Positions 21,324 through 36,692 of a stretch of DNA of 64,000 bases are shown here, in pieces. The translations under genes were made by a program, and so were the position numbers. The notes under the pieces were generated by a model. The model was given only the letters and a program-made list of their open reading frames with translations, ran no database searches and was not told the DNA's origin. The DNA comes from Methanosarcina sp. 2.H.T.1A.6 (lineage in GTDB: Archaea > Halobacteriota > Methanosarcinia > Methanosarcinales > Methanosarcinaceae), in NCBI RefSeq assembly GCF_000979455.1, contig NZ_JJOY01000045.1, positions 1 to 64,000 of the forward strand, in the 5' to 3' direction. Each line of letters starts with the position of its first letter. Within the stretch, counting starts at the first letter, position 1.

Positions 21324-24194
21324 TCACTTCGTTTCCGGTTTTTCCGACTTCAAAGCCTTAATTTCTCCATGCTCTATGCCGTATGTTTTGACAGCTTTCG
21401 GGGCTCCGAGAAGGAGTTTTCGGATCCTGTTATAGACGCTCGGGAATTTCTGGGAATCCAGTTCTCCCAGGAGGTCTGCCAGGATCTTTACCAGTGGGAT
21501 ATGATACTTTGATTCCATCTGGTCTATGTTTGCAAAGGCGTTGAGCATATTGACGGTGCTGAATTCGTTTACAGAAGCCAGCTTTGTCAGGATTTCTGCA
21601 AAGAGAGCCCTGCCTTCTTCGGTCTGGAGGGATTTCTTGCGGTTGCGGGCAAAGCTTCCGTAAAGGGCACGCTGGTCATTTGTCTGTTCGATCCTGAAGG
21701 CAGGTGACCTTTCCATTTCCCGGACCAGTTCGACTGCATCAATACTGCTGTTATTTCCGATTACTGCAAGGAAGGTTTCCCAGGCAACAAGGTTCTGCTT
21801 TGATTCCGCTTCAAAGGCTCTCAGGACTTCAATCTTGTCCGGAGCCGAACTGTTAAGGTATGCGGCAAATGCGCTCAATCTGTCTGTTGCACAGGCTGCG
21901 GTCTCAAACTGCTGTTTTATCAGGGCATGGATATCAGGGGTATCGAGGGTTGCAAGTACTCCGAGACAGACATTTTTAGCCTGCCTGCTCTTGATCACCC
22001 TTGCTGATTCTTCAAGGGAAGCGTCCCGTGAAACCGAAGTATTCTCAAAGAAGTGGTAGGAAGAAATAAGGGAGTTCCTGTATTTCCAGGCAACCGCTTG
22101 CAAGAGTGTCTTCTTTACGTCAAAAAGAGCCTGATAGTGATGGGCAAACTCCTCATCTTCTACGGACTCAAAAATGGCCAGGAACTGCCCTCCAGCCCTT
22201 TCGAGAAGCTGCCGGTCATTAAAGAGCCTGTAGTAGAGTTCTATAAAGTCTTCAGAGGGGGCTGCACCCGGAACTTTAAGGAGCCTCAGCTTTTCCCGGT
22301 CCACAAGGGTATAGAAGGCGGTAAACCTGCCTGTGATGTCGCTGTCCTTCCGGACCTGCAGCAGGAGCTCTTCCTGGCTCGCCCTGTAAACGAGTTTTCC
22401 ATAGAAAGAAGACTCTCTGTTCAGGGAAAGGAAAGAAGGCATGTCCACGTTTTCAACCGTAATTTCTGCAGTTTCCCCACTTATTCTTTCCAGGACTTCG
22501 GCAAGGTCATTTCCGTTTTCGTCCACAAGGGCTGCCTTGAAGGGGAACTCCCAGGGCTTTCCTCCGGCAGGGACCTGCTGTTTGAGGAAGAAAGTAAACT
22601 TCCGGGAAGGCAGGTCATATTCGGCTGAGACCTCGACTACAGGGAACTTTGTCTGCTTCAGCCAGGTTTCGGCCATTTCCTTTAAAGGCTGCCCGCTTTC
22701 TTCTTCCATGGCTTCGATCCAGTCCTGCGTGGCCGCGTTTGAGTGACTGAACTTTTTGAAGTAGCGGTCCAGGCCCCGGACAAAAGTGTCCTTGCCTATG
22801 AGAGTCTCGACCATGCGCACGTATTCGGGGGATTTTACATACGTAACGGCAGTGATCAGGTCATTTGGGTCATTGAAGCCGTCCGGGATGATGGGCATGG
22901 ATGCAGCGCCCGAGTCCAGGGCAAAAGTCCCCGATGCCGGGGCAAACAGGTCAAGCAGCCTGCCGATCCTCTGGTAATCCTCTCCGAAGAGGAAAGCGTG
23001 GTACTGCTCTTCCACATGCACGGTCACAGCTTCGTTCAGCCAGATCTCAAAGGGGCTTTTTCCCGTAACCTCGGACCCGTTCTGGTTGTGGTAATATTCG
23101 TGCACCTTAACCCTGATCATGTACTCGAAAGCCGGGTCAGTGATCTGCCGGCTAGGCATTATACGGTTTGTGGTAATCGTGGTGTTCCCGACGTTTTCCA
23201 TGCCCCCGAAGTCCGAGTTCTGCATCCCTATTTCCCTGTAGACAGTTCCCGTGTATTTGTACCCCGGAGTGATGGCCCCGTTGAGTTCTGCAAGCTCGCC
23301 CCTGACCTTCAGGAGTTCTTCTTCCAGAGGGGATTCGGACTTTGCATCAAGTTTTATTTTCTCTCGCTTGCGGACAAGCTCCCAGAGCTCCTTCCTGATA
23401 AGCAGCTTATCTTCATCGAACTGCTCGGCCCCTGTAAAGAGATAGACCCACATAGCCGAATCATGCAGGATGTCAAGCGCTTTTTCGGCAGCTTCTGCGT
23501 TTGAGCCGGGCGGCACAAGCAGTTCCAGCATGAAAGTATCTCCATCAGGGTACTCAAATTCCCTGCTAAAAGTCGCATATGTCCCCACGCCGAGGAAAAA
23601 GAGATATGGCGCCATCGGAGTGACGGAGTTGTCATAGACGATTTTGTCCCTCCCCGGCTTTACGGTATGCCTTGCAACAACGACGTCCCCGTTTGTGATA
23701 AGGTTCGTGTACCTCGAATCTGCAATGATGGTTGTCCTGTACGTGCACTTTGCGCACATGTCGTCAATGCAGGGCACGATCCTCTGGAACCCCCACTGCT
23801 GGCACTGCGTGATCTGCTGCGGAGGAGCCCCTGCCGGCGTTTCATCGTAATACAGCCCCTCAAGGACATTTTTGGTAGGCCTGCAAACCGTATCCGTAAC
23901 AACCGCAATCTCAGTATGCGGAGGAATCACGTCCCTGAAATTGATTTCGAGAATCGCATCGTCCTGCCTGTACCTGTATGAAACCTCAGACTGTATGCAG
24001 CTCACAGCCCGGATCTCAAGGTCCCTGCAGTTTAATTCCAGCGTCTCAATAGGAGCGTCCTTTGTCCTGACCCTGAGCAGGGATTTCACATTGGTTTTGT
24101 CATCATAGACCTCAAACACCAGGTTCATATGTAAAACGTCAACAGTAAGCTCCCCGAAATCTTCAGGATAATATTTGTACAGCCTATTTTTCAT
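21324..24194 (-). CDS. M1 family zinc aminopeptidase-like protein
   Basis: The protein has 956 residues. The gluzincin signature is complete: HEYYH at residues 365-369 and the third zinc ligand Glu388 exactly 18 residues later (LNEAV). The M1 substrate-binding motif usually written GAMEN is GGMEN here (331-335 region). The N-terminal beta domain and the long C-terminal helical domain (from about residue 590) agree with PepN-like enzymes, which remove N-terminal amino acids from peptides in the cytoplasm. An extra coiled stretch, LWELVRKREKIKLDAKSES, lies before the catalytic domain. ATG 24194 opens the frame. It stands alone, and its 5' end faces the DISARM-like island. Confidence 0.9.
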   Translation of the reverse strand: MKNRLYKYYPEDFGELTVDVLHMNLVFEVYDDKTNVKSLLRVRTKDAPIETLELNCRDLEIRAVSCIQSEVSYRYRQDDAILEINFRDVIPPHTEIAVVTDTVCRPTKNVLEGLYYDETPAGAPPQQITQCQQWGFQRIVPCIDDMCAKCTYRTTIIADSRYTNLITNGDVVVARHTVKPGRDKIVYDNSVTPMAPYLFFLGVGTYATFSREFEYPDGDTFMLELLVPPGSNAEAAEKALDILHDSAMWVYLFTGAEQFDEDKLLIRKELWELVRKREKIKLDAKSESPLEEELLKVRGELAELNGAITPGYKYTGTVYREIGMQNSDFGGMENVGNTTITTNRIMPSRQITDPAFEYMIRVKVHEYYHNQNGSEVTGKSPFEIWLNEAVTVHVEEQYHAFLFGEDYQRIGRLLDLFAPASGTFALDSGAASMPIIPDGFNDPNDLITAVTYVKSPEYVRMVETLIGKDTFVRGLDRYFKKFSHSNAATQDWIEAMEEESGQPLKEMAETWLKQTKFPVVEVSAEYDLPSRKFTFFLKQQVPAGGKPWEFPFKAALVDENGNDLAEVLERISGETAEITVENVDMPSFLSLNRESSFYGKLVYRASQEELLLQVRKDSDITGRFTAFYTLVDREKLRLLKVPGAAPSEDFIELYYRLFNDRQLLERAGGQFLAIFESVEDEEFAHHYQALFDVKKTLLQAVAWKYRNSLISSYHFFENTSVSRDASLEESARVIKSRQAKNVCLGVLATLDTPDIHALIKQQFETAACATDRLSAFAAYLNSSAPDKIEVLRAFEAESKQNLVAWETFLAVIGNNSSIDAVELVREMERSPAFRIEQTNDQRALYGSFARNRKKSLQTEEGRALFAEILTKLASVNEFSTVNMLNAFANIDQMESKYHIPLVKILADLLGELDSQKFPSVYNRIRKLLLGAPKAVKTYGIEHGEIKALKSEKPETK

Positions 24195-24304
24195 AAAAAT
24201 GTCACCGAGTAAAAGTTATGAAAGTTATATTGTGGAATAGGAAAGGGAGGTATGGGATTTAAAGGTGTAGTTTGAGTGGGATAGGAGAAATCCAAAGTTT
24301 TAAA

Positions 24305-24352
24305 ATCAGATGATTCACATCAACATGTTAATATATTCCAATTTCATCTGAT
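24305..24352 (+). promoter_or_regulatory. Inverted repeat around the promoter of the methyltransferase gene
   Basis: ATCAGATGA (24305-24313) and TCATCTGAT (24344-24352) form a perfect 9-bp inverted repeat centred on a TATA-like TTAATATATTCC (24328-24339). It lies 50-110 bases before the methyltransferase start and is well placed to be an operator controlling the island. Confidence 0.5.
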
Positions 24353-24414
24353 GTTAATCGTTTTTTAGAGAATGAACAAAGTAAAAAAGAAAAACAGTTT
24401 CGGTGAATTTCTGG

Positions 24415-25686
24415 ATGAAACCAAAATACACAGTTCTTGATATGTTTTCTGGTGCAGGAGGACTCTCAGAGGGTTTCTTTCAGCAGGGATTTAAATTTGT
24501 ATCTCATATAGAGAAAAGTAATCATGCAAGGAATTCTCTCGAAACTAGAGCGATTTACCATTCTCTGAAAGATTCCAGTAATGAAGGAATTTATAGAGAT
24601 TATATTTCAGGAAATCTCAACAGAGATGAATTTATCCAAAAATTCGAAGAGCTTGACCTCCCTCCAGCTGGATTGTTACAGGGAGAAGTGGCTGAATCAA
24701 AAGAAACTACTATGATAAAAGAAATTCAAGAACATTTAAAAGTCATTGATAGTGATTCTGTTGATGTAGTCATAGGAGGGCCACCATGTCAGGCTTATTC
24801 TGTTGCTGGGAGAGGCAGGAAGCCAAAGGAAATGAAGGAAGATCCCCGTAATTATCTATACAGGCATTACGTTTCATTCTTAAAAAGCTTTGAGCCAAAA
24901 ATTTTTGTATTCGAAAACGTTCCGGGAATTAAAAGTGCTATAGATGGGATTATTTACTCAAATTTGCATGAGGAATTGAAAAAACTTGGATATACAACAG
25001 AAGCCCATATACTGAATGCAAAAGATTTTAGTGTACTTCAGGAAAGAAACCGGATAATATTTATTGGCTGGAAAGATGAGTATGATCTTTCATATCCGGA
25101 CTTTTTAAAAACTCCTCTCAGCAGGTTCCATGTCTCATCCCTTTTGAAAGACCTTCCCCCATTACAAGCCGGTGAAGGTACTGATAGTCCTGCAAAATAT
25201 ACAAAGCCATTCTCATGGTCATCTGAATATCTTCAAAGATTTAAGATTAGAGAAAAGAAAGATATACTCATTCAACACAACGCAAGAATACATAATTCCA
25301 GAGATCGTACCATATACAGACGTGCAATTGAAAAATGGGATAAAGAAAGAAAACGGCTGAAATATGATGAACTACCTCAGGAACTCCAGACACATAAAAA
25401 TAAAACGTCGTTTCTGGACAGATTTAAGGTGGTCAATCAGTATGGTTACTCCCATGCCATACTTGCTCACATATCAAAGGATGGCCACTATTTCATTCAT
25501 CCTGATATCAAACAGGCAAGATCTCTGACAGTTAGAGAAGTGGCAAGAATACAGTCATTTCCTGATAATTATAAATTCGAAGGCCCTCGAATCGCGCAGT
25601 ATGCACAGATTGGCAATGCTGTGCCTCCTCTTATGGCTAAAGGGATAGCAGTTGAAATAGAGAAGATGCTTGAAGAGATTTCATGA
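24415..25686 (+). CDS. drmMII: DNA (cytosine-5)-methyltransferase, DrmMII-like
   Basis: This enzyme methylates cytosine at C5 in a specific DNA sequence, most likely to mark self DNA for the island. The motifs come in normal order: I (VLDMFSGAGGLSEGF), IV with the catalytic Cys (GGPPCQAYSVAGRGR), VI (FVFENVPG), VIII (QERNRIIFIG), IX (RSLTVREVARIQSFPD) and X (QIGNAVPPLMA). The variable target-recognition region lies between VIII and IX. ATG 24415 is preferred, with GGTGA at 24402-24406; an in-frame GTG at 24403 is possible. Its last four bases overlap the next gene (ATGA). Identification as DrmMII rests on the drmA-drmB-drmC cluster that follows. Confidence 0.93.
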   Translation: MKPKYTVLDMFSGAGGLSEGFFQQGFKFVSHIEKSNHARNSLETRAIYHSLKDSSNEGIYRDYISGNLNRDEFIQKFEELDLPPAGLLQGEVAESKETTMIKEIQEHLKVIDSDSVDVVIGGPPCQAYSVAGRGRKPKEMKEDPRNYLYRHYVSFLKSFEPKIFVFENVPGIKSAIDGIIYSNLHEELKKLGYTTEAHILNAKDFSVLQERNRIIFIGWKDEYDLSYPDFLKTPLSRFHVSSLLKDLPPLQAGEGTDSPAKYTKPFSWSSEYLQRFKIREKKDILIQHNARIHNSRDRTIYRRAIEKWDKERKRLKYDELPQELQTHKNKTSFLDRFKVVNQYGYSHAILAHISKDGHYFIHPDIKQARSLTVREVARIQSFPDNYKFEGPRIAQYAQIGNAVPPLMAKGIAVEIEKMLEEIS

Positions 25687-26357
25687 ATACAGTTACCAGA
25701 GATAAAGAATATTTCTCAAAAATAAAAATAATAAGAACTGAACTTCTTATATGGGGAGAGGAAAATCTCAGGAAATTTCCATGGAGAGAAACCTCTGATC
25801 CCCATAAAATTACCGTTGCTGAAGTGATGCTTCACAGAACGAAAGCTAATCAGGTAAAAGATATTTACGAACAGTTTATTATTAAATATCCTGATTTTGA
25901 GTCAATTGTTAAAGCTGGCCGTGAAGCAATAAAAGATGATTTAAAATCCCTTGGACTTTTCTGGCGTGCAGATTTACTTTACGATATGGCCGTTGAAGTT
26001 GTAGAAAAATATGGTGGAAAACTGCCTCTGGAAAGGAAAAAATTGATGGCAATGCCTGGAGTAGGAAATTATATCTCAGCGGCCATCCTATGTTTTGGAT
26101 ATAACCTTCCCGAACCAGTACTCGATACAAATACTGTGCGTGTTTTAGGAAGAATTTTTGGGTTGAAAATTACAGATTCCTCAAGGAGAAGCAAACTTTT
26201 CTATGGAATTATGTATGATCTTGTTAATTTCTGGGATCCCAGAACCGTTTCTTTCGCTTTAATTGATTTTTCAAATGCGGTTTGTATTCCTAGAGATAAA
26301 CCTAGATGTGAAATTTGTAGTCTTAGAGACATCTGTATATATTACTTAGAACTGTAA
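25683..26357 (+). CDS. Thymine-DNA glycosylase of the Mig/HhH-GPD family
   Basis: This is a 224-residue endonuclease III superfamily protein. The helix-hairpin-helix is LMAMPGVGNYISAAIL with catalytic Asp148 in VLDTNTVRVLGR. A 4Fe-4S site is formed by Cys201, Cys209, Cys212 and Cys218. The position that is Lys in endonuclease III and Ser in MutY is Tyr130 here, as in Mig.MthI, the T:G mismatch thymine glycosylase encoded beside a C5 methyltransferase in Methanothermobacter. It overlaps the methyltransferase stop by 4 bases, so translation is coupled. The expected role is to remove thymine left by deamination of the island's 5-methylcytosine. MutY-like A:G activity is the alternative. Confidence 0.88.
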   Translation: MNTVTRDKEYFSKIKIIRTELLIWGEENLRKFPWRETSDPHKITVAEVMLHRTKANQVKDIYEQFIIKYPDFESIVKAGREAIKDDLKSLGLFWRADLLYDMAVEVVEKYGGKLPLERKKLMAMPGVGNYISAAILCFGYNLPEPVLDTNTVRVLGRIFGLKITDSSRRSKLFYGIMYDLVNFWDPRTVSFALIDFSNAVCIPRDKPRCEICSLRDICIYYLEL

Positions 26358-26401
26358 ATCCCTTACAATTACGATTCTTAATTCCTTTTTATCTAAATTC
26401 T

Positions 26402-26462
26402 TTTTTGAATATAGTTATTCAAAAATAAATGTAATATATTCATTTAGGACTATATGAATATA
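26402..26462 (+). promoter_or_regulatory. Two inverted repeats upstream of drmA
   Basis: TTTTTGAATA-TAGT-TATTCAAAAA (26402-26425) is a perfect 10-bp stem. TATATTCAT (26435-26443) and ATGAATATA (26454-26462) form a perfect 9-bp inverted repeat just after it. Both share the half-site TGAATA. The first may end the methyltransferase-glycosylase transcript; together they may be operators of a separate drmA promoter, since about 240 bases separate the two units. Confidence 0.5.
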
Positions 26463-26599
26463 GAGAAACAATTCTATCGAAAAATATTTAAACCAATTTT
26501 AGAATACTAACTTAGTATAATAGTCTTGAATATTTAACAGATCAGATCTTTGATAATTCATTTTGATTGAATATTTATTGGACTGGACGGAGTGAGAAT

Positions 26600-29500
26600 G
26601 TGCGGGAAAAATATATTGAAGAGTTGATAAAAGAAGTTTTAGGACCAAGAAATGGATCTGAAGAAACAATAATTGGAGCAGATCCTTATACAGAATACAT
26701 CACTGGAGTTATTATTCCAAAGGATTGCAAACAAAGAGAACTTGGTCCAGATTCGGAAATTCTCAATATTGAGGGGGATGATAAGGGGGCAGAAGACACT
26801 GATTCACGAGAAAAAACGCTTTCAATCCTCCCATCTGAGCTTGATCCTCGTGTAAGATCCAAATCATTTGGAATATCTTTTTTAGTTAAGGGTAAAGATC
26901 CTTATTTGAAAGTCTGTGTAACTTGGGGAAGATATTTCAAAAAAGAACTTACTTCAGAAAATTCTGATAGAAAGAAAGTTACAGAAACGGAAATTTTTTG
27001 GAAACGAAAACCTTATTGTAAAATTATTAATCTCAATATGTCTGGAGAATCCTCTAAAGAAATAACTGTTTACGAGGGAATAGATGGAAAAATTGTATTG
27101 AATAGTCGGGGGATAAAGGTCAATGATTCACTCCATATTATTCTGAGTCTTATAAATGAGTTAAAGATCGGAGATTGTTATGGAGACAAAGTGATTGAAT
27201 CGTCTCTTTATCAGCCTTCTATACGTGTCATTCTTGGAAATAATTGCAAACTAGAGTCAATTGATTCCGAAGAAAATGATGAGCTTAACTTTATTTACAG
27301 AGAAAATCCTGTTATCGCAAGAGGTCACATGTGTTCCTCGATATGGAAGGATGTCGATTATCAAAATAAACTTGACATAAAAGTATTATGGCCTGATGGT
27401 ATTCATTTTGATGATTGTCATGAATTCACAACATGTGATGTAAGAAGTGAGTTTGTTCCTCTTTATCCAAATCCAGCACCTCTTTTTGAATGGATAAATT
27501 CTGAAATCTCGAATTCTCCAGTCTTCTCAGCTTTAAAATTATCCGAAATGTGGGATGAAACAGAAATAAAAGATTATTTAAATCCTATCCTAAAAAGTTA
27601 TGAAAAATGGATTCAAAAGAATGAAACTTCACTTGAGGATTTTTCAGATAAGGATAAAATTATCGCAAAAAAAATCATAGATAAACAAAAAATTTGCCTT
27701 AAAAGGATTAATGGAGGAATAGAATGTCTTCAAAAAGATACAGATATTCTTTTGTCATTTTGCTTTGCCAATAAAGTTATATGGTTACAAAATCTCTGGA
27801 AAAAGGACGGAAAACTGGAGGAAAGTGATATTGATTTTGTTTGGAGACCATTCCAACTTGCATTTTTCTTAATGAATCTGGAATCTCTATCCAATAAAGA
27901 CTCTGGATTCAGAGACTACGTTGATTTACTGTGGGTACCTACAGGAGGAGGAAAAACAGAGTCTTATCTTGCAATGATGGCCTTTGTTATGGCTTTAAGA
28001 AGAAGGAATGCACAGGCAAGACTTCGGAATGGAGATAAAGATAACAAAGATATAACTGGGGCAGGAACGTCCATAATTTCCAGGTATACATTACGTCTGT
28101 TAACTGTCCAACAATTTAGAAGAACACTTGTTATGATTACGGCAGCAGAATACCTACGTGTTTTGAATAAGCAGGGACTTTCTGGATGGAGGCCACAAAA
28201 GTGTTCTATATCCGAAGATTGGCTATACGGAACGGTAAGATTTTCTGTGGGAATGTGGGTAGGAGGAGGGGTATCTCCTAACCATCTCCGTGGTGAACAA
28301 GGAGCGATTAAGGCATTACAAAACAGTTCATCGTCAGAAGGTGAACCTGCTCAGATAGTAAAATGTCCAGTATGTGGCAGTTGGCTTGCTGTTCCCAGTT
28401 CGGGTTTACCAGCTGGGGTTAATAAAATATATCTCGTAATTAAGTATGAAAAAACTCTCTCTGAATTGAAGAGTCACGTTTCAAAGCTTATATCAGTTTC
28501 TGATTTGGTTACGGAAATTCAAGTTTCAGATAATAGATGCCTTAGCAACTGTTTCATAATGTATATTGCACTTGACAGCTCCAGAAAAGTTGACGAAAAA
28601 GAGTTTGATGATATTATTTCGAAACTTGAAAAAGAGCTTAAAGTTAAAGTTGTCTCTTTCAGACCGTCACGACCTGGTTATTTCCCTTCATACAATGAAG
28701 TTGGAAGAAAAAAAGACTCACCTGTTGATTTTGAAATTTTTTGCCCGAATCCTGAATGTGATCTTAACAGTGATGTTAATTATAAGGAAGGTGTGCCCTC
28801 AAATGTTTCTGGAAATTCAAAAAAGAAATTACCAGACGGTCTGTTTGTGAAGGACAATTCTTCCCCATTTGCTGAAAATTCACATATTCCTATTCCAGCA
28901 TATACAGTTGATGAACAGATATACCATAGATGTCCAACTATTATTGTAAGTACAGCAGATAAAATAGCAAGACTGGCTTTTGAGCCCAGGTCTAGTTCTA
29001 TATTTGGAAACGTGAAAAAATATAATGGATTTTATGGTTACTATCGTGATGATTCAGAAGAATTATTACCAAACAATTACACCAAAAGTGCAATTTCAAA
29101 GTATTCCACTAATGTAAATCCATTCCTTCCGCCTGATATGATAGTACAGGATGAACTTCATTTAATGGATGGGCCCTTGGGTAGTATGTTTGGTATTTAT
29201 GAGTGTATTGTTGATGGTCTTATCCGTGAATCAGGCGGAATTCCAAAGTATATTGCATCTTCTGCAACTGTTAATGATGCAGCGATTCAAGTTAAAAGTC
29301 TTTTTAATAGACCGTTATTCCAGTTTCCGGCATACGGTCTAACTTTCAAAGATAGTTTTTTTGTAAGAATGCCTGTCTGGTCATCTGGATGGGATGAAAA
29401 TAGACCCGGAAGAGTTTACATGGGGATCTATGCACCAGGAAGAGGTCCGTTGACACCAATTATAAGAATATGGTCAAGGATGCTGCAGACTGGTGAAGAG

Positions 29501-30412
29501 AATTGCTCTGAAAAGGACATTATAAATTTCTGGACTCTTGTAGGTTACTTTAATTCCATTAGGGAGTTAGGAGGGAATAGATCACTTTTTAGAGAAGACA
29601 TTATTGAAAGGTTAAATAATATTTCCAAAGGTTCAGTTCGAAATTTGGATGCAGAAAAGGTTGTTGAACTTTCAAGCCGGATAAACTCTACTGATATTCC
29701 ACAGCTACTTGAAGAACTGGAACAGGGAAAGAAACGCACTATTAATGAAAACCCTGATGCTATATTCACCACATCAATGTTTGGAACTGGTGTAGATATT
29801 CCTCACTTATCCTTGATGGTTGTAAACGGGCAACCCAAAACAACATCTCAGTACATTCAGGCAACTGGTCGCGTGGGAAGAGATCATGGAGCTCTGGTTG
29901 TCACATTTTATAAAGCTGGGAGAGCAAGAGATCTTAGCCATTATGAAATATTTACAGGGTACCATCATAGAATAAACATCGAGGTAGAACCTGCTTCTGT
30001 TTCTCCTTTTTCAGACGGATGTTTAGAGAAAGCAGCGGGTCCTGCAATTGTTTCTTTTCTAAGAAATATGCCTGATCCCAGTTCTAGATGGTTTGTTGAA
30101 TCAGGTCATATTATTCAAAGTGAGGAGTCATTGAATGACTTCGAAAGGTTTTTGAGTAGATGCTTACCTCGTGATGTTTCCAAAAAAGCGATCCAGTGTT
30201 TCCGTTCTCAGTATGATCGATGGCTTGGAATCTCACAAAAGCTTGGTTTCACTAAAAATTTGGTTTATAATGAGTATACTCTATATAGGCCTCCTGAAAA
30301 AAATGTAATACTTGGAGATCCAGCACATGAAAAGGTTGGTTTATGTGTTGTTTACAAAAACGCTCCACAATCTCTTCGTGAAATAGAAGAAACTACTGCG
30401 TTTGAGGTATAA
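26600..30412 (+). CDS. drmA: DISARM-type helicase DrmA
   Basis: A very large superfamily 2 helicase-like protein (1,271 residues). Walker A is WVPTGGGKTES (about residues 445-455), the DEAH-like box is QDELH (about 850-854), and motif VI is YIQATGRVGRDHG. Between the first two lies an insert of some 400 residues with two Cys pairs (CPVCGSW and CPNPECD) that could bind zinc. This layout, followed directly by DUF1998 and PLD genes, is that of DrmA, the DNA-remodelling helicase of DISARM. Start: the open frame reaches TTG 26567, but GTG 26600 has GGAG at 26589-26592, 7 bases away, and is preferred. Its stop is 2 bases before drmB. Confidence 0.88.
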   Translation: MREKYIEELIKEVLGPRNGSEETIIGADPYTEYITGVIIPKDCKQRELGPDSEILNIEGDDKGAEDTDSREKTLSILPSELDPRVRSKSFGISFLVKGKDPYLKVCVTWGRYFKKELTSENSDRKKVTETEIFWKRKPYCKIINLNMSGESSKEITVYEGIDGKIVLNSRGIKVNDSLHIILSLINELKIGDCYGDKVIESSLYQPSIRVILGNNCKLESIDSEENDELNFIYRENPVIARGHMCSSIWKDVDYQNKLDIKVLWPDGIHFDDCHEFTTCDVRSEFVPLYPNPAPLFEWINSEISNSPVFSALKLSEMWDETEIKDYLNPILKSYEKWIQKNETSLEDFSDKDKIIAKKIIDKQKICLKRINGGIECLQKDTDILLSFCFANKVIWLQNLWKKDGKLEESDIDFVWRPFQLAFFLMNLESLSNKDSGFRDYVDLLWVPTGGGKTESYLAMMAFVMALRRRNAQARLRNGDKDNKDITGAGTSIISRYTLRLLTVQQFRRTLVMITAAEYLRVLNKQGLSGWRPQKCSISEDWLYGTVRFSVGMWVGGGVSPNHLRGEQGAIKALQNSSSSEGEPAQIVKCPVCGSWLAVPSSGLPAGVNKIYLVIKYEKTLSELKSHVSKLISVSDLVTEIQVSDNRCLSNCFIMYIALDSSRKVDEKEFDDIISKLEKELKVKVVSFRPSRPGYFPSYNEVGRKKDSPVDFEIFCPNPECDLNSDVNYKEGVPSNVSGNSKKKLPDGLFVKDNSSPFAENSHIPIPAYTVDEQIYHRCPTIIVSTADKIARLAFEPRSSSIFGNVKKYNGFYGYYRDDSEELLPNNYTKSAISKYSTNVNPFLPPDMIVQDELHLMDGPLGSMFGIYECIVDGLIRESGGIPKYIASSATVNDAAIQVKSLFNRPLFQFPAYGLTFKDSFFVRMPVWSSGWDENRPGRVYMGIYAPGRGPLTPIIRIWSRMLQTGEENCSEKDIINFWTLVGYFNSIRELGGNRSLFREDIIERLNNISKGSVRNLDAEKVVELSSRINSTDIPQLLEELEQGKKRTINENPDAIFTTSMFGTGVDIPHLSLMVVNGQPKTTSQYIQATGRVGRDHGALVVTFYKAGRARDLSHYEIFTGYHHRINIEVEPASVSPFSDGCLEKAAGPAIVSFLRNMPDPSSRWFVESGHIIQSEESLNDFERFLSRCLPRDVSKKAIQCFRSQYDRWLGISQKLGFTKNLVYNEYTLYRPPEKNVILGDPAHEKVGLCVVYKNAPQSLREIEETTAFEV

Positions 30413-30414
30413 AT

Positions 30415-32217
30415 ATGACAAGGGAATTTCAGCATATAAGCAGATCGCAGTTTGTTCTTACTTATGGTCCGGGTTCCGTAATTGAAACTAAAAAAGGACC
30501 TCGGATTATTCCATCTCTGGAAAAAGGACTTGGTGAGAACTTTAACCCGGATACTTTTCGAAGATTTGAAATCGCAGAGACAAGGATTTCCAAGTACATT
30601 AAAAGCAGATCGGAAGAAAAAACGAATATTCGCATATTAGCTTTGCCTACAAACGCTGGACTTGGAAAGCAAAGCAATTATCGCGTTTACTCAACATATG
30701 TTTTCCCAGTGTGGAAAGTCTGCTATGGAAGAAGAGGAAATCATGCCCCCATTTTGTATAACGGATCTAAATGTCCTCTATGTGAAACTAACGATGAATC
30801 TTCTGCAGTTAGATTTGTTGCAGCATGTCCAGATGGTCACCTCGATGAAGTAAACTGGAATTATGCTGTCCATAAAAGCTCATCATGTAAACCAGACTAC
30901 TTCCGCTGGAAAGCAAACGGAAGTTCTCTAGAAGATATTATCATAGAATGCCCTATTTGTAGAGCTAGAAAAAATATGAAGGAAATTTACAAAATGAATT
31001 TTTTCTGTAAGGGAAGAATTCCTGAAAGAGAATCTCCTTCTAGCGATTATTTTCCCATTTATACCAAGCCTGATAGGTCAAAAAATTGTGAAAAAATAAT
31101 GAAAATAATGCAGAGGCAGTCAACTTCACTCAGGGTTCCTGAAACAATGACCCTTTTGACAATTCCAGAATTCGATAATCAGATATCAAGAATTCTTCAA
31201 AGGTATGATGTTTCAATAGCTCTTGATACAATGGTGAAAATGCCTTCCGATATTTTACTTAGGATGGATGCTAATACTGTTATAGACTGGATTACAAGTA
31301 GTTTAAAAGGAAGAATTCCTGATGATTCGCTTGAAGTTATAAGTAAAGAAATTAGAGAAAAAGGTGTATTAGAATTCTGTGATCTTTATAAACGCTTAAA
31401 CGATGAAAACAAATCTTTCATGAGTTTAATGTATGAAGAATTTGATTCACTGCTATCAGGAGCAGGAAGTTCAACCAAAAATTTTGTTATGGGGCATCCA
31501 AAAAAGATAATCTCAACCTCACCTCTCATTCCTGAATTGCTTGTTCACCCGATTAGTAAGATCAGAACAATCACAGTTCAGCTTGGCTACAGACGTATAG
31601 TATCAACTGCAGATGAAAGTGAACCCCAATTATTAGTCTCATCAGGTGTGTATTTGCCTTCGGATGGAAGTATCTGGTATCCAGGGTATGAAGGATTTGG
31701 TGAAGGTATATTCATTACATTTGGTGAAAGAAAAGTGCCTGATCTAACCTCAAAACCTGCTTACAACCTATGGAAAGAATATGCAGCGTCGGGTATGAAG
31801 TCTGATTCAGGATGGTCGGAGGTTTCTGCTGAACCCGAATTTGTCTGGCTCCATACACTTTCTCATGCAATCATCAGAGCTTTATCCTCACACACCGGTT
31901 ATTCAGCAGTTTCACTGAGGGAAAGAGTTTACATATCTCGTGATGGAAAAAATGGGGGTATTCTTATTTATAATACATCTCCAGGAGAAGATGGAGGGAT
32001 GGGGGGACTTGTAGGATCAGTAGATATATTCCACGAAATTATCAATAGTGCAGTTGGGAATATTTTGCTTTGTTCTAATGATCCACTTTGCTGTGATGTA
32101 ACTAAATCAGCAGAATGTGTAAATGGAGCGGCGTGTTATAGTTGTCTTTTGATTTCTGAAACTTCATGTGAACATAGAAACCTTTGGCTTGATAGGCATC
32201 TTCTCATTGGAGATTGA
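30415..32217 (+). CDS. drmB: DISARM protein DrmB (DUF1998)
   Basis: The 600-residue protein starts with SQFVLTYGPGSVIETKKGPR, typical of the DrmB/DUF1998 N-terminus, and has a Cys cluster (CPLCET at about 120-125, CPDGH at about 139-143). The C-terminal DUF1998 part has LHTLSHAIIRAL, then GEDGGMGGLVGSVD and a second Cys cluster (CCDVTKSAEC...CYSCLL...C). In DISARM, DrmB forms a complex with DrmA that engages DNA. The gene follows drmA by 2 bases, with GAGGTAT inside the end of drmA as ribosome binding site. Confidence 0.88.
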   Translation: MTREFQHISRSQFVLTYGPGSVIETKKGPRIIPSLEKGLGENFNPDTFRRFEIAETRISKYIKSRSEEKTNIRILALPTNAGLGKQSNYRVYSTYVFPVWKVCYGRRGNHAPILYNGSKCPLCETNDESSAVRFVAACPDGHLDEVNWNYAVHKSSSCKPDYFRWKANGSSLEDIIIECPICRARKNMKEIYKMNFFCKGRIPERESPSSDYFPIYTKPDRSKNCEKIMKIMQRQSTSLRVPETMTLLTIPEFDNQISRILQRYDVSIALDTMVKMPSDILLRMDANTVIDWITSSLKGRIPDDSLEVISKEIREKGVLEFCDLYKRLNDENKSFMSLMYEEFDSLLSGAGSSTKNFVMGHPKKIISTSPLIPELLVHPISKIRTITVQLGYRRIVSTADESEPQLLVSSGVYLPSDGSIWYPGYEGFGEGIFITFGERKVPDLTSKPAYNLWKEYAASGMKSDSGWSEVSAEPEFVWLHTLSHAIIRALSSHTGYSAVSLRERVYISRDGKNGGILIYNTSPGEDGGMGGLVGSVDIFHEIINSAVGNILLCSNDPLCCDVTKSAECVNGAACYSCLLISETSCEHRNLWLDRHLLIGD

Positions 32218-32219
32218 CG

Positions 32220-32687
32220 ATGATTGAAGAAATTGTTCCTGTGGCTACAGGTGAAAAATGGGTTGGATACGGGATAAGATCATTTAGATCGGTAATCAAT
32301 GATCTGATTTCGAATTCCACTAATGAACTTTCTCTTACAGCTTATGTTCTCACAGATATGAGCATTGTGAATAAATTGAGAAAGGCATTAGAAAGAGGAG
32401 TCAAGGTTGAAATATACTTATACGGTGATGAATTTGCGATAAGAAACGAGGCTGTAGATTATATACTAAATCTACAAAAAGAATTTAATTATCTAAAAAT
32501 ACACAGAGTTGAAGATGAAATACTTCATGCTAAAGTTCTTGTTGCTGATGGCAAAAAAGTTCTTTCTGGATCGGCTAATTTTACATTTAGTGGAATGACA
32601 AATAATTATGAGCTTGGTTTTCTAGTAGAGGATCCATCTATAGCGCTCCAGATTTTAAAATTAATAAAAAAGTTGGAGAAGAAATGA
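32220..32687 (+). CDS. drmC: DISARM phospholipase-D-like protein DrmC
   Basis: A 155-residue protein with one PLD motif: LHAKVLVADGKKVLSGSAN holds the His, Lys and Asp of HxKx4D and the GSxN tail. Single-motif PLD proteins usually dimerise to make one active site and act as nucleases. In DISARM the drmC gene lies after drmB and is reported as not essential. The frame opens at a TTG (32214) overlapping the drmB stop, but ATG 32220, with GGAG at 32209-32212, is the better start. The stop overlaps the next gene by 4 bases. Confidence 0.85.
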   Translation: MIEEIVPVATGEKWVGYGIRSFRSVINDLISNSTNELSLTAYVLTDMSIVNKLRKALERGVKVEIYLYGDEFAIRNEAVDYILNLQKEFNYLKIHRVEDEILHAKVLVADGKKVLSGSANFTFSGMTNNYELGFLVEDPSIALQILKLIKKLEKK

Positions 32688-35600
32688 GAACTTATTACCA
32701 TTTTGCTTATACTTGTCCCAATTGTCATGAACCTCACGTAACTGGGAAACCAATTGAATTTATTGACAAGAAACATCTTAGATGTTCTTCTTGCAATGCA
32801 TTATTCTATACTGAAGTAAATATTTTCACAGAATCATTTCCCGAAACTGTAAAGTATGTTACAGAAAAGGAAGGAAAGAGATCGGAAAATTATCTTTCCC
32901 ATTTGCCTCTTATATGGAAAGTTGTGCCAAATGACATCGAAAAATCTTATCTTGACTGGATAAAAGATAATCCTAAAGGAATATTCCTTGTCACTTGGCC
33001 ATGGAATGACCTTCGTTTCATCCCCCTTCTCGCATCAGAATATCTTTTAACTTTCCCTAACAGAAAAGTTGCAGTCATTGGAAATTACTCAACAAATAAT
33101 GAAAGTAAATATTATGTACCTACATATTCTTCGTATGATGTATTTAGTAAGACTGTTTATATTGAGGGTGAAGATAATTTTTTTCCACCTAAATTAAAAC
33201 AAGAAAGCAACAATCTTAAAAGGGAAATGATTTTCGAAAAAGAAGATGTTGTAGAAGTTAAATATAGAAAGTTTGGTGAAAATGAAACAAGAAATAAATT
33301 ATGTCACGGTACTGTAAGAAAGTGTAAAAATTCAATCCTTAGAGAAGCAAAAGAACTTGGAGATAATTTTTTAAGAGAAATTTCTGTTCCTAAAAACGAT
33401 GGAAAAAAAATTGAAGTTATAAATGAAAATGGAGAATGGAATGTTTCTCTTGAAAAGCAAACTCGATGGACAGGGAGTCTTAACTATAAGAAGATATGGC
33501 TTTGGGAACTCCTTGTTAACTCTACAAAATTAAAAAATTGTGGAACGGAAATTGAGTCGTTTTTTCACGATGAAGAAGCTGCTGAAGAAATTCTTGATAA
33601 AAAAATCAAGTTACACTTTTTTTCAATTGAATCTGAAATTTCGGAGGTACTTAGAAGCATAAAAATAGTATCTCCTGATGTTCTTATAATTGAAAATATG
33701 GATGAAATCATCTCGGATTCCAGGTACGTTGGCCCTAGAACGGAAAAGTTAATGGAGTTTTTGAGAAAAACTGATATCAGCACAGTTCTGATGTTTTCGA
33801 CTAATCCAGATATCCGTCACTTATATAGAATTGGTGCAAATGAAACCGTTTTTGGTTCTATCAGGGTATTATTTCACACTTGGGATTCCCCCACTTTTCT
33901 TGGTGATCTGAATCCTGATAGTGATTCAAGACATCCAAATCCTTTGTCTTCAAAAATGGAACAAATGCCTAAAGAAAAGCTTAGAGAAATTAAGCCAGAA
34001 TACATTTCGATTGATTCTTACGATGAGATTTCTGAGTTATTGGGGAAATGCTTGAAGAGTATCGATGAGGAAACTAAGAAAGATGTAAAGCTGTATTTTT
34101 CTAGAGTTTTTTCAACACTTTTAAATGTGGTCGGAGAATACGGAAAACCTGAAATCCTATCTGTGATGAAGCAATGGAATTACCCATTGACTTATGATAT
34201 TTTATTTACTGATCTCAGCCAGAAAATTGAACAAGAACTCTTCACTTCTTTAAATGATTCTATAAGAAAAGTTTTCTATACTGATTCATATATTCAGAGG
34301 AATCCCCTTAGAGAAAAAATGCGGGATATTGTCAGGGATATATTCAAGAAAAATAATGGGTGTTACATTACGATAATTGTTCCTCGCTTTGAATCCAAAG
34401 GAGCTGAACGTTTACTTCGTCAAGAGGATTCAATACCAGAACAAATTTCATCTTTTCTAACTGTGTGTAGTTGGGAGAAATTAGGAAGTATTGAAAGGAT
34501 TGTTCCAGAGGGCTTCAAACATTTTGTACTATCTACAGGATATCCATCTTTAAGTTATAATTTGCATTCTTCTGATGTTGATAAATTTTTCTTTGTTGGA
34601 ACTAATAAAACAATCGGAAGGATAAAAGAAATCATAGACAAGAGACTACTTGAGATAAACGCCTATCCTGTTGTCAGAATTTATGATGACACTCCTGCAC
34701 CTTGCCTGCTAAGAGGTCTTTTGTCTAAAGTTAACTTTGATGAAAATGAAAAATTACAATATATTGATGATATTGAATTGGGCGAGGAAGAGTATTCTAT
34801 GCCTTATTCTGGAGTGAGTATTTATGGAAAAACTTCAGATATTATAGATGAATATAATAATTATTATAAGTTAACTTGTGGAGAGACAGCTATTCTGTGC
34901 ATTGATTCTCAAAATAGAGGTTTATTTCTTCCTCTTGATAGAGATATTATGCTTAAGGATGGAAATTCTTTCAGAGAAATATCCTTTAGTCTTGACTCTT
35001 CCACTTCCTCGATGAAGAGAGAATTAATTAATACGGAAGTTATTCTCAATCGTTTGGGTTTCTATCAATCGTTTAGATCTATATTTTTTAAATTCATGAT
35101 GAAATGGGGAGACAAACTTCAATTCCAGAAAGGACCGTTTGAGTGGAAGGGATTTAAACAATTATTCAATGATTCGATTCTATGGATTGATCTTCTGGAG
35201 CGAACAATTGAAACTTTTGCAGAACAGAATAGTATCTCTCCCCAAAAGTCAAAGGATGAAATTGCAAAGATTCTAGCAGATTCAGGAATTACCGCAAAGA
35301 ATCCTGATTACATTTCTAGTTGGTGGACAAATTATGAAGAAGTTATGGTTGATTCTGAAACATATAAATTGTATCGAACAGAACATCCCTTCACTCCTCA
35401 AGATATGAGAATTATTTTTAAATATATATCTGAAATATCCTCTTTTTTAACAGCTGATACAATGATTGCGGAGAAATCATACGCAGCTGCTCTTACAATT
35501 CAAAATTTAAGGCGAAATGTGTTTAAGAGCTCTAATAAAAAGGAGGATAAGTACTCATATATATACTCAAAACTTGAAAAGCAAATGAGTCAACTTATAA

Positions 35601-35713
35601 GAGATGCAGAATTATTCAAGGTTGATTTCGTTGAAAAGGTTAATGTCTCAAAAGAAATTGAAGCGATGAAAGTAATCTATGACTATAACGATTTTTTTGA
35701 AAGCTTGAATTGA
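32684..35713 (+). CDS. Large zinc-ribbon, helicase-like protein in the DrmE position
   Basis: A 1,009-residue protein. The N-terminus is a zinc ribbon (Cys11, Cys14, Cys34, Cys37). IFLVTWPWNDLRFIPLLASE (about 95-114) stands where a helicase has motif I, but there is no GKT/S. DVLIIENMDEII (about 332-343) followed by STVLMFSTNP (about 366-375) resembles Walker B and the next helicase motif. VLSTGYPSLSY and FFFVGTNKTIGRIKEII near 615-650 may belong to the second lobe. Class 2 DISARM carries a poorly characterised protein, DrmE; this gene, coupled to drmC by an ATGA overlap, fills that slot, but I cannot confirm homology. It could be a novel component. Confidence 0.65.
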   Translation: MRTYYHFAYTCPNCHEPHVTGKPIEFIDKKHLRCSSCNALFYTEVNIFTESFPETVKYVTEKEGKRSENYLSHLPLIWKVVPNDIEKSYLDWIKDNPKGIFLVTWPWNDLRFIPLLASEYLLTFPNRKVAVIGNYSTNNESKYYVPTYSSYDVFSKTVYIEGEDNFFPPKLKQESNNLKREMIFEKEDVVEVKYRKFGENETRNKLCHGTVRKCKNSILREAKELGDNFLREISVPKNDGKKIEVINENGEWNVSLEKQTRWTGSLNYKKIWLWELLVNSTKLKNCGTEIESFFHDEEAAEEILDKKIKLHFFSIESEISEVLRSIKIVSPDVLIIENMDEIISDSRYVGPRTEKLMEFLRKTDISTVLMFSTNPDIRHLYRIGANETVFGSIRVLFHTWDSPTFLGDLNPDSDSRHPNPLSSKMEQMPKEKLREIKPEYISIDSYDEISELLGKCLKSIDEETKKDVKLYFSRVFSTLLNVVGEYGKPEILSVMKQWNYPLTYDILFTDLSQKIEQELFTSLNDSIRKVFYTDSYIQRNPLREKMRDIVRDIFKKNNGCYITIIVPRFESKGAERLLRQEDSIPEQISSFLTVCSWEKLGSIERIVPEGFKHFVLSTGYPSLSYNLHSSDVDKFFFVGTNKTIGRIKEIIDKRLLEINAYPVVRIYDDTPAPCLLRGLLSKVNFDENEKLQYIDDIELGEEEYSMPYSGVSIYGKTSDIIDEYNNYYKLTCGETAILCIDSQNRGLFLPLDRDIMLKDGNSFREISFSLDSSTSSMKRELINTEVILNRLGFYQSFRSIFFKFMMKWGDKLQFQKGPFEWKGFKQLFNDSILWIDLLERTIETFAEQNSISPQKSKDEIAKILADSGITAKNPDYISSWWTNYEEVMVDSETYKLYRTEHPFTPQDMRIIFKYISEISSFLTADTMIAEKSYAAALTIQNLRRNVFKSSNKKEDKYSYIYSKLEKQMSQLIRDAELFKVDFVEKVNVSKEIEAMKVIYDYNDFFESLN

Positions 35714-35808: not shown

Positions 35809-36692
35809 TTATGAATGAAGCGTAGGCAGCAACTTATAAAATCGTGGCCAGTTTTCCTGAATACGTCCAAGACAGTGCCAGAATCTCCACAAACATCCTC
35901 TACTTTTATATTTGATAGGACTTACGCAGATGAACAAAAAACCAGTATTGGGAAGTACCAAACGGTCTACAGCACAATATTCTTGGTAAGCCCTTATGTG
36001 CTTGGTTTTACTTATCAAGTGCGTAACTCCTATTTGAGAATCCCTAGAATACGGTTTATGGTAAAAGAACATTTCAAGGATGTCTGTAAATATTGCTTCC
36101 ATGCTTGTCCTTTCAGTGTGTCTGATTATCCTGGCATTAGTGGTTTCAAAGTGGTTTAACTCCCATTCGAGGAAGTCTTTGGCGTCTTCAAAGCTTTCAA
36201 AATTCCCAATCAGGTAGGTCTCACCGTCTGCTGTAGACGCCGCTTCGATACCATAAGAATCAATATATTTCGGCTCTTCTTTAAAAGCCGCAGTTTCTTC
36301 GCGGCTCCCTCCACTCTCCCCAGAGATCGGATGCTCCGGATTTTCATCTCCGTAAGCAGCCACATTAAAGTTTTTCCCGCCTTCTTCTCCTGACCCTTCT
36401 CCCACCAATTTGTCCAGCTTTTCGGAAACAATAAACCTTTCGAGCATCAGGATAATTTTTGCTTTCGGGCTGCTGGGATTTAACTGGTAAAACCGGATGT
36501 TTCCTGCTCTGCCTTTCTCTTCGACAATTCCTTCTGCAACTAATTTATTCAGATGCTTGTAGACGGTTGCTTTTGAAACGCCCGTCATCCGGACTATATC
36601 GGCAATATACAGTTTGTCGTCATGGTTTCTGCAAATACTTCAATTATCTTTGCCTGGGGACAGTCCCCGAAGATTTCAGATAAAACAGACAT
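35809..36692 (-). pseudogene. HTH regulator, frameshifted and extended through a mobile element
   Basis: The original protein starts at ATG 36692 (MSVLSEIFGDCPQAKIIEVF). After about 22 codons the frame is lost at an AAA run (36626-36628 on the plus strand); one added A restores ENHDDKLYIADIVRMTGVSK, a winged-helix domain that binds DNA, followed by NIRFYQLNP. The second frame continues through a polar linker to RDSQI, where a small inverted-repeat element has inserted. Without the element the next codon would be TAA, giving roughly 220 residues; with it the frame runs on about 75 more codons to 35809. It is probably a broken regulator unless the frameshift is a sequencing error. It lies just after the DISARM-like island, on the opposite strand. 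Confidence 0.75.
35917..36031. mobile_element. 115-bp MITE-like element
   Basis: The terminal inverted repeats are AGGACTTACGCA (35917-35928) and TGCGTAACTCCT (36020-36031), 11 of 12 matching. The similarity continues inward (GAACAAAAAACCAG against the complement of GGTTTTACTTATC). It is flanked by ATTTGAT (35910-35916) and ATTTGAG (36032-36038), a likely target-site duplication with one later change. It encodes no transposase, so it would be moved in trans by a full-length relative outside this window. Confidence 0.7.

What the first reader, a model, noticed from the sequence alone, without database searches (positions are those of the whole stretch)
24415..35713. Class 2 DISARM-like defence island with an embedded DNA glycosylase
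Seen: C5 methyltransferase, HhH-GPD glycosylase, SF2 helicase with large zinc-binding insert, DUF1998 protein, single-motif PLD protein and a 1,009-residue zinc-ribbon protein, all on one strand with 2-4 base junctions inside each unit. Known: DISARM class 2 consists of drmMII, drmA, drmB, drmC and drmE. Inference: this is a DISARM variant in a methanogen in which a base-excision-repair enzyme has become a regular part.
Basis: partly seen in the sequence, partly recalled or inferred. Interest (0 to 1): 0.85.

Follow-up and report, generated by a model that had tools for sequence, protein, structure and literature searches.

The report
DISARM variant with built-in methylation repair
A methane-producing archaeon carries an antiviral DISARM operon that includes a repair enzyme predicted to undo the mutations its own DNA-methylating enzyme causes, plus a large protein (a likely dead helicase) that takes the place of the usual subunit and matches no model in the family libraries searched.

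Summary
Six intact same-strand genes encode DrmMII, a Mig-like HhH-GPD glycosylase, long DrmA, DrmB, a short DrmC and a 1,009-aa protein (here 'X'). DrmA, DrmB, DrmC and DrmMII are confirmed by dedicated HMMs. X is not DrmE: no DrmE model matches it. 'Class 2' is therefore only half right.

The glycosylase is not a local oddity. It lies between the C5 methyltransferase and drmA in ten other sampled DISARM loci (archaea, Aquificota, Chloroflexota) and forms one supported clade. It follows the methyltransferase, not DISARM. At the same chromosomal site in another genus, the same methyltransferase-glycosylase pair (85%/80% identical) precedes an Mza module instead of drmA-B-C-X. Other DISARM loci carry Vsr beside the methyltransferase instead, never both. 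Its pocket matches Mig.Mth T/G glycosylase, not MutY.

Best reading: a swappable 'methylate and repair' cassette joined to a DISARM effector module. The glycosylase removes T from T:G mismatches left by deaminated m5C in host DNA. X arose once within the long-DrmA branch. It has a zinc ribbon and a helicase-like fold without ATPase motifs, and is probably a DNA-binding or regulatory partner of DrmAB. This is a new variant of a known system. No enzyme activity was tested.

The parts
24415..25686 (+). drmMII, C5-cytosine DNA methyltransferase (alternative GTG start 24403)
   Evidence: PDLC02649 DrmMII 709 bits; PF00145; TIGR00675 dcm; start chosen from the alignment of relatives
25683..26357 (+). 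Mig-like HhH-GPD [4Fe-4S] DNA glycosylase, predicted T:G (m5C deamination) mismatch glycosylase
   Evidence: PF00730; PDLC03398; best solved relative 1kea Mig.Mth; Mig pocket residues; DISARM/Mza-linked clade 97/94
26600..30412 (+). drmA, long form, YprA-type SF2 helicase (alternative TTG start 26567)
   Evidence: NF038326 1855 bits over cut-off; PDLC02571 1999 bits; solved relative DrmA 7s9v
30415..32217 (+). drmB, DUF1998/MZB partner of DrmA
   Evidence: NF038324 488 bits over cut-off; PDLC02583 854 bits; PF09369
32214..32687 (+). drmC, single-motif PLD nuclease (157 aa, aligns only to the PLD part of longer DrmC models)
   Evidence: PDLC02614 216 bits; NF038319 93 bits, below cut-off 133; HKD motif
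32684..35713 (+). X: 1,009-aa protein, N-terminal zinc ribbon (CPNC...CSSC) plus predicted SF2-helicase-like fold lacking Walker A, DExH, SAT and motif VI
   Evidence: single origin within the long-DrmA branch; no Pfam/NCBIfam/PADLOC family; AlphaFold2 and Foldseek; motif scan
24300..24357 (.). 14-nt inverted repeat (TTAAAATCAGATGA/TCATCTGATGTTAA, 30 nt apart) in the upstream region of drmMII; candidate operator, function untested
26358..26599 (+). intergenic gap between the MII-GLY and A-B-C-X units, conserved in three Methanosarcina-type loci; likely separate promoter and module boundary

Best explanation
The island is a DISARM system built from two modules. Module 1 is a C5 methyltransferase (DrmMII) translationally coupled to a Mig-type glycosylase. 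The methyltransferase marks host sites, and the glycosylase excises T from the T:G mismatches left when the resulting m5C deaminates, so keeping the marks is not mutagenic; host AP endonuclease and polymerase complete the repair. Module 2 is the restriction side: DrmA-DrmB loads on unmodified or end-bearing foreign DNA, DrmC is the nuclease, and X, a zinc-ribbon protein with a helicase-like but ATPase-dead fold, acts as an accessory DNA-binding or gating subunit in the place of DrmE. Shown here: gene content and family membership, the recurrent MTase-glycosylase pairing, module swapping with Mza, the alternative use of Vsr, the pocket residues, the single origin of X and its lack of ATPase motifs. 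Inferred: T:G activity in vivo, that the glycosylase acts on self and not viral DNA, and every function of X.
For: DISARM HMMs. MII-GLY-A-B-C-X order in Methanosarcinaceae, two further Halobacteriota families, Aciduliprofundum and a Bathyarchaeota-labelled contig. GLY-A-B-C without X in Anaerolineae, Hydrogenothermus and an unnamed archaeon; the methyltransferase beside it is always C5. Glycosylase clade support 97/94 with the two Mza-linked copies nested inside. G320 shares both flanks of the window (threonine-synthase-like gene 94%, aminopeptidase 76%, downstream HTH gene 62%) and MII 85%/GLY 80%, but has MzaB/MzaC/DUF4420 in place of drmA-B-C-X. GLY divergence tracks MII and not DrmA: window-G279 MII 58, GLY 61, A 57; window-G155 MII 39, GLY 42, A 57. 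Vsr (PF03852) stands beside the C5 methyltransferase in other DISARM loci, including Methanolobus, which has X but no glycosylase; never both. Mig.Mth residues F27, R47, A50, Y126 and D144 are kept and MutY's V45/Q182 are not (PMC2714593). The archetype mig lies near the cytosine methyltransferase on plasmid pFV1. DrmAB ATPase is reduced by methylated DNA (PMC9142583).
Against: No biochemistry; Tyr in the catalytic position also occurs in some MutY enzymes (PMC2714593), and L187 of Mig is Phe here. Some DISARM loci with a C5 methyltransferase show neither Vsr nor glycosylase (e.g. L060, L065, L069), so the repair partner is not obligatory. The model of X has mean pLDDT 68 and pTM 0.49, so the fold assignment is moderate and the domain arrangement unknown. 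Some MAG contigs may be mis-binned.
Confidence: 0.78

Rival explanations
1. The glycosylase is itself an antiviral effector: it excises a modified or mismatched base from viral DNA, making abasic sites that DrmC or host enzymes turn into breaks, like Brig1/Brig3 or the PabI restriction glycosylases.
For: Antiviral DNA glycosylases exist (PMC11078745, PMC13160076, PMC10273834); the gene lies in a defence operon.
Against: Brig1 and Brig3 belong to the uracil-DNA glycosylase superfamily, not HhH-GPD. This gene follows the methyltransferase across different effector modules and is replaced by Vsr, which fits repair. Its pocket is that of Mig.
Confidence: 0.12
2. The glycosylase is a MutY-type adenine glycosylase or generic Nth repair gene parked in the island, with no functional tie to methylation.
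For: TIGR01084 mutY scores 146 bits.
Against: That score is below the cut-off of 286.5 bits; there is no C-terminal 8-oxoG domain (224 aa); MutY specificity residues V45/Q182 are absent; the genome's two Nth-like genes are distant; the pairing with C5 methyltransferases recurs.
Confidence: 0.06
3. X is a highly diverged DrmE, so the system is an ordinary class 2 DISARM.
For: In two archaeal DISARM loci (L213, L214) the DrmE-like gene also lies downstream, after drmC or drmB. hhalign places X 527-651 on DrmE 357-483.
Against: hhalign probability is only 4%. No DrmE model of PADLOC or NCBIfam hits any X member tested, while the Planomicrobium DrmE scores 677 and 975 bits with them and has the Pfam DrmE_C domain, which the window X lacks. 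The DrmE fold model was too poor to compare (pLDDT 50).
Confidence: 0.2

Closest known systems
DISARM class 2 (DrmE-DrmA-DrmB-DrmC-DrmMII; Ofir et al. 2018, from own knowledge)
   Same: DrmA, DrmB, DrmC and the C5 methyltransferase DrmMII are present, adjacent and intact
   Different: no DrmE; long DrmA branch (NF038326); short DrmC; extra glycosylase; extra protein X; two transcription-unit-like modules
Mig.Mth T/G mismatch glycosylase on plasmid pFV1, near the plasmid's restriction-modification genes (solved as 1kea)
   Same: family, pocket residues, neighbourhood of a C5 methyltransferase
   Different: 38% identical over the match; here directly overlapping the methyltransferase gene and inside DISARM
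Dcm-Vsr type pairing of a C5 methyltransferase with a T:G repair enzyme
   Same: same predicted task; Vsr stands in the equivalent place in other DISARM loci
   Different: Vsr is a nicking endonuclease, unrelated in fold to this glycosylase
Mza system (MzaB/MzaC, DUF4420)
   Same: uses the same MII-GLY cassette at the same chromosomal site in another genus
   Different: entirely different effector genes
XPF/Hef SF2 helicase domains
   Same: best Foldseek matches of X (E 6e-7 and 2e-6)
   Different: about 10% identity, low TM-score, no helicase motifs and no XPF nuclease established in X

Membership tests
DISARM | DrmA-family SF2 helicase | tested here: met
   NF038326 1855 bits, cut-off 999; PDLC02571; tree
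DISARM | separate DUF1998 protein DrmB next to DrmA | tested here: met
   NF038324 488 bits, cut-off 240; PF09369
DISARM | PLD nuclease DrmC | tested here: met
   PDLC02614 216 bits; HKD motif; NF038319 is below its cut-off
DISARM | anti-phage activity repressed by host methylation | not testable with these tools
   needs experiments
DISARM class 2 | C5 methyltransferase DrmMII | tested here: met
   PDLC02649 709 bits
DISARM class 2 | DrmE | tested here: not met
   no DrmE model hits X; none in this genome with PDLC02635
DISARM class 1 | DrmD (SNF2-like) and adenine methyltransferase DrmMI | tested here: not met
   none among the six proteins
Mig T/G mismatch glycosylase | HhH-GPD with catalytic Asp, Tyr126 and C-terminal [4Fe-4S] Cys | tested here: met
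   Tyr130, Asp148, Cys201/209/212/218 invariant in A3
Mig T/G mismatch glycosylase | A50 and L187 in place of MutY V45 and Q182 | tested here: inconclusive
   A50 kept; position 187 is Phe here (Leu or Tyr in relatives), never Gln
Mig T/G mismatch glycosylase | excision of T opposite G | not testable with these tools
   needs an enzyme assay
MutY adenine glycosylase | V45/Q182 determinants and C-terminal 8-oxoG domain | tested here: not met
   Ala/Phe at these positions; 224 aa, below the mutY cut-off
SF2 helicase (for X) | Walker A, DExH, SAT, motif VI | tested here: not met
   none found by motif scan; fold-level similarity only

The most novel reading that the evidence does not exclude
X is a sequence-recognition or gating subunit that must match the methyltransferase's target, a specificity partner of DrmAB like an HsdS or a methyl-reader, which would give this DISARM branch site-specific self/non-self discrimination. 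In one relative (L055) the methyltransferase (75% identity, lowest over residues about 160-320) and X (62%) have diverged while DrmA, B and C stay near 90%, and X is less conserved than DrmA in every pair compared.
Probability: 0.15. Interest if true: 0.75.

Novelty: new variant of a known kind. Interest (0 to 1): 0.52.

Why it matters
It shows that a DISARM branch treats the mutagenic cost of its own self-marking as part of the system, by carrying a T:G repair enzyme (Mig-type here, Vsr elsewhere), and that the 'methylate and repair' cassette can be exchanged between unrelated defence systems at one chromosomal site. It also defines a large DISARM subunit missing from PADLOC, Pfam and NCBIfam, which would let annotators recognise this archaeal branch and lets the unsolved role of the DrmE slot be tested.

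Tried and rejected
X in plasmids and viral contigs: no relatives. X against solved structures by sequence: nothing credible. AlphaFold2 of DrmE for fold comparison: mean pLDDT 50, so no fold search was made. X versus DrmE, DrmA and DrmB by hhalign: probabilities 4%, 1% and 8%, no homology claimed. X-like fragments in G058, G195 and G284 lack DISARM genes on the stretches held, so they were treated as remnants or contig-edge pieces. Restriction-glycosylase and Brig-like readings were considered and ranked lower. No held paper has DISARM, glycosylase and drmA together.

Full report
WHAT IS THERE. The window holds six intact genes on one strand at 24403-35713. PADLOC and NCBIfam models name five of them: DrmMII (709 bits), an HhH-GPD glycosylase (PDLC03398, 157 bits; mutY model 146 bits against a cut-off of 286.5), DrmA of the long type (NF038326, 1855 bits, cut-off 999), DrmB (NF038324, 488 bits, cut-off 240) and DrmC (PDLC02614, 216 bits). 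The sixth, 1,009 aa, here called X, matches no family in Pfam, NCBIfam, PADLOC or PHROGs beyond noise. Motifs of the methyltransferase, helicase, PLD nuclease and glycosylase are intact. The genes form two units, MII-GLY (4-base overlap) and A-B-C-X (2-base gap, then two 4-base overlaps), separated by 210-243 bases whose sequence is conserved in three Methanosarcina-type loci. The island is GC-poor and stands next to an aminopeptidase-like gene (flanking gene names are my reading of the sequences).

HOW GENERAL IT IS. Among 393 genomes of the phylum, seven have a long DrmA over cut-off; six of these also encode X, and the seventh, on a cut contig, has A-B-C without X. Five of the six carry MII-GLY-A-B-C-X; one (G153) has A-B-C-X-MII without the glycosylase. 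A scan of one genome per species with DrmA returned 80 loci (cap reached). None of the short-DrmA loci has it within the DISARM operon; on one such contig (G113) a Mig-like gene lies about 13 kb from DrmA beside another C5 methyltransferase. In L061, L066 and L067 the methyltransferase is a different, shorter PF00145 protein, X is absent, but the glycosylase is still there. In the glycosylase tree the DISARM-linked copies and two Mza-linked copies form one group (97/94). In the DrmA tree all X-bearing rows form one group (100/100).

WHAT THE GLYCOSYLASE FOLLOWS. Two genomes of another genus in the family (G320, G232) have glycosylases nearly as similar but no long DrmA. In both, the neighbour on one side is the same methyltransferase type and on the other an Mza-like system (in G320 MzaB 416 bits, MzaC 652 bits, DUF4420; genes of similar size and sequence start in G232). 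G320 is at the same chromosomal site as the window: threonine-synthase-like gene 94%, aminopeptidase 76%, methyltransferase 85%, glycosylase 80% upstream, and the HTH gene of window 35809-36588 (62% over 110 aa) downstream. So one site keeps the methyltransferase-glycosylase pair and exchanges the effector module. In other species the site holds BREX genes (G139: BrxC 1950, PglX 1483, PglZ 1049 bits) or different genes. More widely, in 20 non-DISARM neighbourhoods of the next-best glycosylase matches in the phylum, 14 have a C5 methyltransferase within 3.5 kb and two more at about 4 kb on the same strand. Pairwise identities show the glycosylase tracking the methyltransferase rather than DrmA (window-G279: MII 58, GLY 61, A 57; window-G155: 39, 42, 57).

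THE VSR ALTERNATIVE. Other DISARM loci have a Vsr endonuclease (PF03852, confirmed for six of them) beside the C5 methyltransferase: Methanolobus L056 (which has A-B-C-X but no glycosylase), L052, L054, L071, L105, L126, L171, L212 and others. No locus has both enzymes; some have neither. In bacteria Vsr repairs T:G from deaminated m5C and its characterised genes are usually linked to C5 methyltransferase genes (PMC12907096). Two unrelated T:G enzymes in the same place is the strongest argument for what the glycosylase does.

WHICH BASE. The best solved relative is 1kea, Mig of Methanothermobacter, and the best plasmid match is mig of pFV1, near that plasmid's cytosine methyltransferase. PMC2714593 names the residues that separate Mig from MutY. 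The window protein keeps F27, R47, A50, Y126 and D144 of Mig; position 187 (Leu in Mig, Gln in MutY) is Phe here and Leu or Tyr in relatives; MutY of Listeria shows Val/Gln. Two bacterial DISARM copies (L061, L066) have Val or Ser at position 50, so the signature is not perfect across the clade. Tyr in the catalytic position argues for a monofunctional enzyme (inference). T:G activity remains a prediction.

X. It starts with a zinc ribbon (C11/C14, C34/C37, invariant in nine sequences). The AlphaFold2 model is moderate (pLDDT 68, pTM 0.49). Foldseek matches are SF2 helicases, led by XPF and Hef (E 6e-7 and 2e-6) with low TM-scores. By the order of elements, strand 99-104 and helix 113-123 surround TWPWNDLRF where a Walker A would be, and IIENMDEI and MFSTN stand where DExH and SAT would be (inference); regular-expression scans find none of the four motifs. 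X is therefore predicted to bind DNA or partners without hydrolysing ATP. DrmE models score 677 and 975 bits on a true DrmE and nothing on X; hhalign gives 4%. X is less conserved than DrmA in every pair measured, and in L055 it and the methyltransferase are the two genes that have clearly diverged; this single case is the basis of the novel reading, held at low probability.

VERDICT. A genuine DISARM variant, not strictly class 2, with a methyltransferase-linked repair glycosylase and a new accessory protein. No held paper mentions DISARM, glycosylase and drmA together, and the recent survey of YprA-family systems mentions neither a glycosylase nor DrmE. Subscription papers and supplements were not available, so earlier notice cannot be excluded.

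LIMITS. Several loci are from metagenome bins; the Bathyarchaeota contig is 85% identical in DrmA to a Halobacteriota one, so it may be recent transfer or mis-binning. No activity was measured.

Noticed in passing
window 24194-24403 side of the aminopeptidase gene; L218 (G139), L219-L224, L181, L182: The site upstream of the M1 aminopeptidase-like gene looks like a defence hot spot in Methanosarcinaceae: DISARM here, Mza in G320 and G232, BREX (BrxC, PglX, PglZ) in G139, a two-gene set with a weak type II REase match in G227 (similar pair in G125, G158 and G355).
   Followed up: partly
window 24300-24357: A 14-nt inverted repeat flanking an AT-rich stretch in the upstream region of drmMII; both arms are kept in G148, only the left arm clearly in L055 and G320. 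Candidate operator or autoregulatory site.
   Followed up: partly
L055 828-2108 and 9102-12128: In Methanosarcina sp. UBA11020 the methyltransferase (75%) and X (62%) diverge from the window while DrmA, B and C stay at 88-90%.
   Followed up: partly
L047 13575-14705 (G058), L048 10599-10958 (G195), L049 1-252 (G284): Fragments of X without DISARM genes on the stretches held; the G195 match contains a stop codon and G284 is at a contig edge. Probably remnants of lost islands.
   Followed up: no
window 32214-32687: DrmC here (157 aa) and in relatives (151-178 aa) aligns only to the PLD part of longer DrmC models; the N-terminal four-helix bundle described for most DISARM PLD proteins (PMC12458937) seems absent in this branch.
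   Followed up: no
L057 (Desulfuromonas sp. SDB contig): A bacterial-labelled contig carries a 55% identical DrmA-B-C-X set, cut within X; either transfer into bacteria or a mis-binned contig.
   Followed up: no
L187, L188, L189 (G368, G009, G233): Mig-like glycosylases beside large genes resembling Z1/DUF4420-type islands, with no C5 methyltransferase on the stretch held.
   Followed up: no
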